From positions 48,199,965 to 48,263,964 of the forward strand of contig JAVGWX010000013.1 of assembly GCA_036924085.1 (NCBI GenBank): DNA of 64,000 nt, written 5' to 3'. A program made the translations under genes and the position numbers. Position 1 is the first letter of the stretch. Every line of letters begins with the position of its first letter. The notes under the pieces were generated by a model. That model saw nothing but the letters and a program-made list of their open reading frames with translations. It had not been told where the DNA came from and made no database searches. Source of the stretch: Ariolimax columbianus (lineage: Eukaryota > Mollusca > Gastropoda > Stylommatophora > Arionidae). Positions 13,725 through 14,983 of the stretch are shown piece after piece.

Positions 13725-13734
13725 CTCCGACAGA

Positions 13735-14900
13735 TATCGGGTTGATCCTGCCAGTAGTCATATGCTTGTCTCAAAGATTAAGCCATGCATGTCTAAGTTC
13801 ACACTGTCTCACTGTGAAACCGCGAATGGCTCATTAAATCAGTCGAGGTTCCTTGGATGACACGATCCTACTTGGATAACTGTGGCAATTCTAGAGCTAA
13901 TACATGCTTACCAAGCTCCGACCCTCGCGGAAAGAGCGCTTTTATTAGTTCAAAACCAATCGTCGTTTCCCCTCGCGGGGTTGCGGCGTCCCCACTGGTG
14001 ACTCTGGATAACTTTGTGCTGATCGCATGGCCTCATGTGCCGGCGACGCATCTTTCAAATGTCTGCCCTATCAAATGTCGATGGTACGTGACATGCCTAC
14101 CATGTTTGTAACGGGTAACGGGGAATCAGGGTTCGATTCCGGAGAGGGAGCATGAGAAACGGCTACCACATCCAAGGAAGGCAGCAGGCGCGCAACTTAC
14201 CCACTCCCGGCACGGGGAGGTAGTGACGAAAAATAACAATACGGGACTCTTTCGAGGCCCCGTAATTGGAATGAGTACACTTTAAACCCTTTAACGAGGA
14301 TCTATTGGAGGGCAAGTCTGGTGCCAGCAGCCGCGGTAATTCCAGCTCCAATAGCGTATATTAAAGTTGTTGCAGTTAAAAAGCTCGTAGTTGGATCTCA
14401 GGCGCAGGCGGGCGGTCCGGCTCGCGCCGGTTCACTGCCCGTTGTCTCCTGCCCTACCGTCTGCCGGCTCTCTCCCACGGGTGCTCTTCGCTGAGCGTCC
14501 TGGGTGGCCGGCGCGTTTACTTTGAAAAATTAGAGTGTTTAAAGCAGGCCTCGGCTGCCTGAATAATGGTGCATGGAATAATGGAATAGGACCTCGGTTC
14601 TATTTTGTTGGTTTTCGGAACTGGAGGTAATGATTAACAGGGACAAACGGGGGCATTCGTATTGCGGCGTTAGAGGTGAAATTCTTGGATCGCCGCAAGA
14701 CGAGCTACTGCGAAAGCATTTGTCAAGAATGTTTTCATTAATCAAGAACGAAAGTCAGAGGCGCGAAGACGATCAGATACCGTCGTAGTTCTGACCATAA
14801 ACGATGCCGACTAGCGATCCGCAGGAGTTGCTTCGATGACTCTGCGGGCAGCTTCCGGGAAACCAAAGTGTTTGGGTTCCGGGGGAAGTATGGTTGCAAA

Positions 14901-14949
<49 letters not shown>

Positions 14950-14983
14950 GCGGCTTAATTTGACTCAACACGGCCAACACTGA
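13735..14983 (+). pseudogene. 18S rRNA 5' two-thirds, fused to retrotransposon leader
   Basis: Begins TATCGGGTTGATCCTGCCAG, i.e. the universal 18S 5' end with two changes, and follows metazoan 18S through the CCAGCAGCCGCGGTAATTCC site near 14320 and GGTGAAATTCTTGGATCG near 14674 to TTGACTCAACACGG near 14983. There it leaves 18S: about 17 bases of the normal sequence are missing and leader sequence starts. Scattered substitutions exist (for example around 14030), but most of the length looks like functional 18S. The 3' third of 18S, 5.8S and 28S are absent, so this is not a working rRNA gene. Confidence 0.9.

What the first reader, a model, noticed from the sequence alone, without database searches (positions are those of the whole stretch)
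13725..14983. Retrotransposon whose 5' end is the 5' end of 18S rRNA
Seen: the insertion begins 10 nt before the first base of 18S, copies about 1.2 kb of nearly normal 18S, then passes without a break into the leader of an intact AP-endonuclease LINE, at a chromosomal site with no other rDNA. Known: rDNA-specific LINEs are co-transcribed with rRNA, and reverse transcriptases of non-LTR elements can jump templates. Inference: either (a) the cDNA jumped from the element's own 18S-like leader onto an rRNA molecule, using the ~60-nt homology, and ran to the rRNA 5' end, or (b) the source copy lives inside 18S genes and the RNA was cut at the mature 18S 5' end before retrotransposition. Either would be an unusual way of building a 5' end.
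Basis: partly seen in the sequence, partly recalled or inferred. Interest (0 to 1): 0.92.

Follow-up and report, generated by a model that had tools for sequence, protein, structure and literature searches.

The report
LINE built on ribosomal RNA precursor
A mobile DNA element in this snail-like genome is copied from an RNA that starts like the cell's own ribosomal-RNA precursor, so many copies across the chromosomes carry the front end of that precursor, which suggests that the element rides on the ribosomal-RNA genes' own transcription.

Summary
Copy A (13725-20480) is 10 nt + 18S bases 1-1239 + rRNA-derived leader + intact APE-RT-RNase H ORF + (GAA)n, between 707-bp target duplications. An older copy B (55503-49690, minus) also carries 18S. 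In the whole genome the 18S head has 1434 first-look candidates; 40 of 40 scored match it from its first base. The 39 besides A all continue upstream of 18S in the same sequence (5' ETS, inferred); 34 of 39 begin at one point, ATCTGGGG, after unrelated flanks, perhaps the rRNA start site. In 16 copies 18S has 1 variable site of 1239, the ETS 37 of 594, the ORF 218 of 3909 (copies picked by 18S match). Best reading: LINE copies inside 18S genes are transcribed by polymerase I and the uncut ETS-18S-LINE RNA is retrotransposed elsewhere. No ordinary rDNA unit appeared in what I read, so the source in rDNA is inferred.

The parts
13018..13724 (+). left copy of a 707-bp target-site duplication of LINE copy A
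   Evidence: matches 20481-21279 except one substitution and AT-run length
13725..13734 (+). last 10 nt of the ETS-like sequence; 5' end of the truncated copy A
   Evidence: identical in 20 of 20 fetched copies, all of which continue upstream
13735..14973 (+). 18S rRNA bases 1-1239 (head of the element), 4 changes private to A
14974..15470 (+). leader repeats: 18S-like pieces start at 14910 (fresh), 15106 and 15290 (decayed, 54/65 and 60/65 identical to the first)
15571..16027 (+). degenerate 28S rRNA 3' end in the leader
   Evidence: RF02543, model up to 3399/3401
16028..16547 (+). rest of the 5' leader
   Evidence: no Rfam match there at E<=1
16548..20456 (+). single ORF, 1302 aa: AP endonuclease, reverse transcriptase, RNase H
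   Evidence: differs from 16 aligned relatives at 2 columns that are invariant among them
20457..20480 (+). 3' end with (GAA)n tail
   Evidence: same tail in other copies
20481..21279 (+). right copy of the target-site duplication (799 bp with its longer AT run)
49690..55503 (-). older copy B: 18S from about base 690, same junction, leader, broken ORF, (GAA)n tail; 9-bp TSD TATATGTTC

Best explanation
A LINE family (APE, RT and RNase H in one ORF) whose retrotransposed RNA is a ribosomal-precursor chimera. A full-length copy is ETS (603-636 nt), 18S 1-1239, an rRNA-derived leader, the ORF and a (GAA)n tail, about 7.35 kb. SHOWN: the ETS-18S head is part of the insert (target duplications enclose it); most best-matching copies share one 5' point; 18S is almost invariant in them while ETS, leader and ORF vary. 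INFERRED: the upstream sequence is the 5' ETS and its common 5' point the polymerase I start; source copies sit in sense inside 18S genes, are transcribed from the rRNA promoter, and the unprocessed RNA is reverse transcribed to its 5' end at ordinary chromosomal sites, where most copies are probably promoterless. Several 18S-LINE junctions exist, so the element probably enters rDNA at more than one point, and each landing can found a chimeric subfamily.
For: 40 of 40 scored hits match the 18S head from its first base. 34 of 39 copies besides A start at the same point, 33 at ATCTGGGG and L020 two bases in (the query began at that base; the 16 nt printed before it differ except L010=L011), 5 are truncated in the ETS. 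TSDs around the whole ETS-18S-LINE unit: 11-14 bp in 10 of 20 by script, 12 bp in L028 by eye, 639 bp in L018 and 537 bp in L023; 707 bp in A. Shared variable sites: 18S 0/1239, ETS 14/594 (p=1.3e-7), leader 42/1459, ORF 81/3909. ETS and ORF distances correlate, r=0.74 (15 copies). A vs B: 18S 2.9% different, rest of monomer 1 13.9%, later leader 9.9%. ORF-less L015 and L025 carry the same head. L059: ETS-18S to 53 nt beyond the usual junction, then a second ETS-18S head and, further on, a LINE 3' end, with a 12-bp duplication at the two outer ends, as expected if a full-length copy had entered an 18S gene and been co-transcribed.
Against: No ordinary rDNA unit, with or without the LINE, was seen; ETS, start site and source are inferred. 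Copies were chosen as best 18S hits, which biases 18S identity upward; an unbiased query did not complete. 18S of an interrupted gene should drift unless homogenised. About 5.7 kb in the middle of L059's second unit were not read, and L059 could also come from a template jump onto a precursor fragment. A vs B, 18S is not significantly less diverged than first and second codon positions (p=0.15). 7 of 20 fetched copies have no resolved TSD.
Confidence: 0.6

Rival explanations
1. The ETS-18S head was captured once from rRNA and is now the element's own 5' UTR; dispersed copies are transcribed from a promoter that starts at ATCTGGGG, and 18S is kept by selection on the element RNA.
For: All 20 fetched copies share the head, its junction and a 1-nt deletion; ETS, leader and ORF vary together, as in an inherited unit; 11 of 20 fetched copies have an ORF of at least 1290 aa.
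Against: No shared change in 1239 nt of 18S beside 2-3% shared variable sites in ETS, leader and ORF is hard to obtain by selection on a UTR; L059 and L063, with other junctions, have 18S with 0 substitutions in 1249 and only the 1-nt indel; decayed 18S pieces in the leader show that such sequence drifts once it is element-borne.
Confidence: 0.23
2. Template jump in each event: the reverse transcriptase leaves the LINE RNA and continues on an 18S or precursor rRNA molecule.
For: LINE reverse transcriptases jump onto other RNAs: R2 to U12 and tRNA (PMC3414825, passages); L1 with 28S and others, by ligation or template switching (PMC13174262, passages). Varying junctions in L058-L064 and the double head of L059 could arise that way.
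Against: One identical junction in 20 of 20 fetched copies, A and B; a shared 1-nt deletion absent from L059, L060, L061, L063, L064 and B; ETS variation linked to ORF variation.
Confidence: 0.13
3. Assembly error, or an ordinary rDNA insertion mistaken for a dispersed copy.
For: AT-run length differs between the two target duplications; homopolymer length may be a polishing artefact.
Against: Copies on many contigs with their own flanks and short duplications.
Confidence: 0.02

Closest known systems
R1/R2-type rDNA LINEs
   Same: rRNA-linked LINEs; [quoted passage not shown] PMC3414825 passages)
   Different: R2 frees its 5' end with an HDV-like ribozyme and inserts at one 28S site (PMC3414825 passages); here ETS and 18S stay in the product, no ribozyme family is matched, and the copies examined have unrelated flanks
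R8 of Hydra (R7: recalled)
   Same: LINE whose target is the 18S gene (R8: PMC5035012 passages)
   Different: R8 is a lineage of R2 (same passages); this element has an AP endonuclease and RNase H, and an 18S target is only inferred
L1 chimeras with 28S, U6, 5S etc.
   Same: sense-oriented rRNA joined to the 5' side of a LINE in one insertion (PMC13174262, passages)
   Different: 28S pieces there are short (median 269 nt) and few (n=18); here a uniform head of about 1.86 kb in a family
R2 with U12 snRNA at its 5' end
   Same: a host RNA captured at the 5' end that may have founded a subfamily (PMC3414825, passages)
   Different: 156 bp of one small RNA, next to the 28S site
Gastropod Ingi LINEs (I superfamily)
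   Same: APE, RT, RNase H order; 273 Ingi sequences tabulated for Batillaria (PMC11203168, passages), which also holds a 49%-identical relative
   Different: clade not tested by a tree; the passages read mention no rRNA head

Membership tests
non-LTR retrotransposon (LINE) | reverse transcriptase with endonuclease, 3' tail, target-site duplications, 5' truncation | tested here: met
I superfamily | RNase H domain after the RT | tested here: met
   PF00075 at residues 1039-1168; that this marks the I superfamily is recalled
Ingi clade | position in an RT tree with named Ingi elements | not tested
   association by host only
R2-type rDNA LINE | restriction-like endonuclease | tested here: not met
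   Pfam shows an AP endonuclease and no other nuclease family
R2-type rDNA LINE | HDV-like ribozyme that frees the RNA from the rRNA co-transcript | tested here: not met
   Rfam at E<=1 in 13700-16560 gave only SSU, LSU and a SmY match at E=0.52; ETS and 18S are retained
rDNA-specific LINE | insertion at one fixed rDNA site | tested here: not met
   flanks of the 5'-complete copies examined are unrelated; copies inside rDNA arrays could not be looked for
rDNA-specific LINE | co-transcription with rRNA | tested here: inconclusive
   products contain ETS-like sequence and 18S; no transcript data
template-jump chimera | independent junctions in each insertion | tested here: not met
   same junction in 20 of 20 fetched copies, A and B; other junctions exist in L058-L064

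The most novel reading that the evidence does not exclude
A LINE lineage that lives by polymerase I: any copy that lands in sense inside an 18S gene gains the rRNA promoter, its uncut ETS-18S-LINE transcript is retrotransposed genome-wide, and serial landings keep adding rRNA to its 5' end (fresh 18S now; decayed 18S and 28S, and in relatives 5.8S, before), so it has no fixed rDNA site and no 5' ribozyme and seeds probably hundreds of precursor copies over the chromosomes.
Probability: 0.4. Interest if true: 0.9.

Novelty: new variant of a known kind. Interest (0 to 1): 0.82.

Why it matters
Known rDNA LINEs such as R2 cut themselves out of the rRNA precursor and use a fixed site. A family that retrotransposes the whole uncut precursor front shows another way to get a promoter and a defined 5' end, may mark the rRNA start site in the genome, and scatters 18S and 5.8S copies, which disturbs rDNA copy counts and 18S barcoding. 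It also makes testable how an RNA with 1.2 kb of 18S in front escapes rRNA processing and is translated.

Tried and rejected
Rejected: a one-off; a cut at the mature 18S end as the family's 5' end; my own interim view, before the genome search answered, that A and B were separate read-through escapes; my recollection that some 18S sites in A (such as GAGCATGAG) were mutations, since an annelid 18S (L001) has the same.

Led nowhere: scans of viral contigs for the ORF, an 18S pattern and the protein alignment (no relatives, no match); plasmid records gave two unannotated 18S-like matches at 80-83%, not used; PDB sequences: best L1 ORF2p, 112 bits, no clade; Pfam on 7 other window ORFs: one weak kinesin-helix hit and one RNase H; RF01960 in the genome gave no usable answer; the unbiased query window:16000-16900 did not complete, so the 18S-selected sample could not be replaced. 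5.8S search: 40 scored hits, dispersed; all 8 loci read lie next to sequence like this LINE; L057 (one of them, extended) shows no match to the 18S head in about 7 kb upstream of its 5.8S (the query held 18S bases 1-1239 only). None of L058-L065 holds GGATCATTA, the recalled 18S 3' end.

Rows dropped before counts: L015, L022, L025, L028 left out of the 16-copy alignment as ORF-less, nested or N-containing; L017 also out of the distance correlation (15 copies). Of 20 fetched copies 7 (L010, L011, L015, L016, L017, L022, L025) have no resolved TSD. Of 254 pattern places 8 were read.

Full report
WHAT IS IN THE WINDOW. Copy A occupies 13725-20480. Rfam aligns eukaryotic SSU rRNA from 13735 (model base 1), and the 18S match ends at CAACACGG, 14973, where the leader begins without a gap. 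The leader has three 18S-like pieces about 190 nt apart and a degenerate 28S 3' end (15624-16027). The ORF has AP endonuclease, RT and RNase H. The insert lies between 707-bp direct repeats that differ by one substitution and by the length of an AT run. Copy B (55503-49690, minus) starts inside 18S, has the same junction and a 9-bp duplication TATATGTTC (in 1.6% of 500 random 50-mers 9 or more bases were shared), and a broken ORF (3 stops in aligned codons).

18S IS FRESHER THAN THE REST. Between A and B 18S differs at 16 of 559 sites, the rest of monomer 1 at 18 of 130, the later leader at 106 of 1069, third codon positions at 155 of about 1277; p=5e-6, 5e-8 and 7e-12. Against first and second codon positions the difference is not significant (p=0.15). 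The first 18S piece is fresh too (64 of 65 in B), while the later pieces show 54/65 and 60/65 in A and 61/65 in B.

THE GENOME. The window belongs to a 2.29-Gb assembly of 401 contigs. Named relatives of the ORF are from Littorina and Batillaria, so a gastropod is likely. The 18S head had 1434 first-look candidates; 40 were scored, A included, and 40 of 40 match from base 1 at about 100%. I fetched 20 copies whole and upstream pieces of the other 19. All 39 continue upstream of 18S with the same sequence, at least 45 nt of it. 34 of 39 begin at one point (33 at ATCTGGGG, L020 two bases in); L016 starts 9 nt in; L017, L031, L042 and L047 are truncated in the ETS. The search query began at that base, so the boundary rests on the flanks: they are unrelated in the alignment of the 20 and in the 16 nt printed for the others. 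The ETS-like part is 603-636 nt in 19 of the 20 whole copies, L017 being the exception. That it is the 5' ETS is inferred from its place before 18S; no independent rDNA unit was available. So A is a truncated member, and the place where it stops, 10 nt before 18S, is not the family's 5' end.

VARIATION. In 16 alignable copies variable sites are: ETS 37/594, 18S 1/1239, 14974-15470 46/483, 28S-like 38/457, rest of leader 31/519, ORF 218/3909. These copies were picked by 18S similarity, which removes private 18S mutations; on the ETS singleton rate some tens of the 1434 candidates could have none (my estimate, no call). Shared variants are less affected: 0/1239 in 18S against 14/594 in ETS (p=1.3e-7), 42/1459 in the leader and 81/3909 in the ORF. 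ETS distances follow ORF distances (r=0.74, permutation p=0.0005, 15 copies), so each ETS belongs with its LINE lineage. 19 of 20 copies have an identical 1250-nt head; L029 has one change. A 1-nt deletion (GA5TT instead of GA6TT) is in all 20 copies and A, and in L058, but not in B, L059, L060, L061, L063, L064 or the annelid L001. It argues for an inherited DNA source rather than mature rRNA as template, but the query itself carries it and homopolymers can be misassembled.

OTHER JUNCTIONS. A pattern for 18S running on past CAACACGG has 254 places (120 forward, 134 reverse; control 0); the 100 listed are dispersed. In 8 of 8 loci read 18S continues, and in 7 of 8 sequence like the LINE leader follows; pairwise overlaps put the joins about 137-165 nt (L060, L061, L063) and about 340-407 nt (L058, L062, L064) further along, L065 being unclear. 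L059 has ETS-18S to 53 nt beyond the usual junction, then a second ETS-18S head starting at ATCTGGGG; some 7.4 kb further a LINE 3' end with (GAA)n follows, and the left flank ...AAATATAGATTG recurs after the tail. About 5.7 kb between were not read, so that it is one unit is inferred. A full-length copy that had entered an 18S gene and was transcribed from that gene's own start would give this product; a template jump onto a precursor fragment is the alternative. The short outer flanks read (about 370 and 250 nt) are AT-rich; they were not searched against Rfam. The 5.8S search shows relatives with 5.8S in front of leader-like sequence (8 of 8 loci read), and L051/L052 have 5.8S, then 28S model bases 24-103, then leader-like sequence, so rRNA seems to have been added to this lineage more than once.

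MECHANISM. I commit to LINE copies within 18S genes, polymerase I transcription from the rRNA start, no effective processing, and target-primed reverse transcription to the RNA's 5' end. Shown are the composition of the products, their common 5' point, their duplications and the pattern of variation; the source and the polymerase are inferred. ORF-less derivatives of about 3.5 kb with the same head (L015, L025, and L028, which is nested in another copy) fit a head supplied by position rather than by the ORF-bearing element. Long duplications recur (A 707 bp; L018 639 bp; L023 537 bp, ending 13 nt before the head). L1 duplications over 100 bp stay at or under 10% of events in HeLa cells and are common in NER-deficient cells (PMC5223499, passages).

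PRIOR WORK. Searches for LINEs joined to 18S, rRNA-derived leaders, 18S-targeted elements, ETS or polymerase I with LINEs, and gastropod LINEs showed no such family in the titles and abstract starts listed (24 of 24, 20 of 32, 15 of 36, 8 of 8, 8 of 8, 10 of 92); most subscription papers are not held. Nearest are R2 co-transcripts and R2 template jumps (PMC3414825, passages), 18S-targeting R8 (PMC5035012, passages) and L1-28S chimeras (PMC13174262, passages). No paper was read whole.

Noticed in passing
window 13018-13724 / 20481-21279; L018; L023: Target duplications of several hundred bp recur in this family (707, 639, 537 bp) beside ordinary 11-14 bp ones.
   Followed up: partly
L049-L057: 5.8S matches at high score lie singly on many contigs directly upstream of sequence like this LINE's leader; L051/L052 add 28S model bases 24-103 and what look like 48-bp tandem repeats.
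   Followed up: partly
L015, L025, L028: ORF-less derivatives of about 3.5 kb with the same ETS-18S head, probable non-autonomous partners.
   Followed up: partly
L010 and L011: Two copies share the same 5' flank but have different 3' flanks.
   Followed up: no
window 24310-48769 and 58652-60261: Many long minisatellite arrays with units of about 14-50 bp.
   Followed up: no
window 44666-45319: ORF with an RNase H domain, probably another LINE remnant.
   Followed up: no
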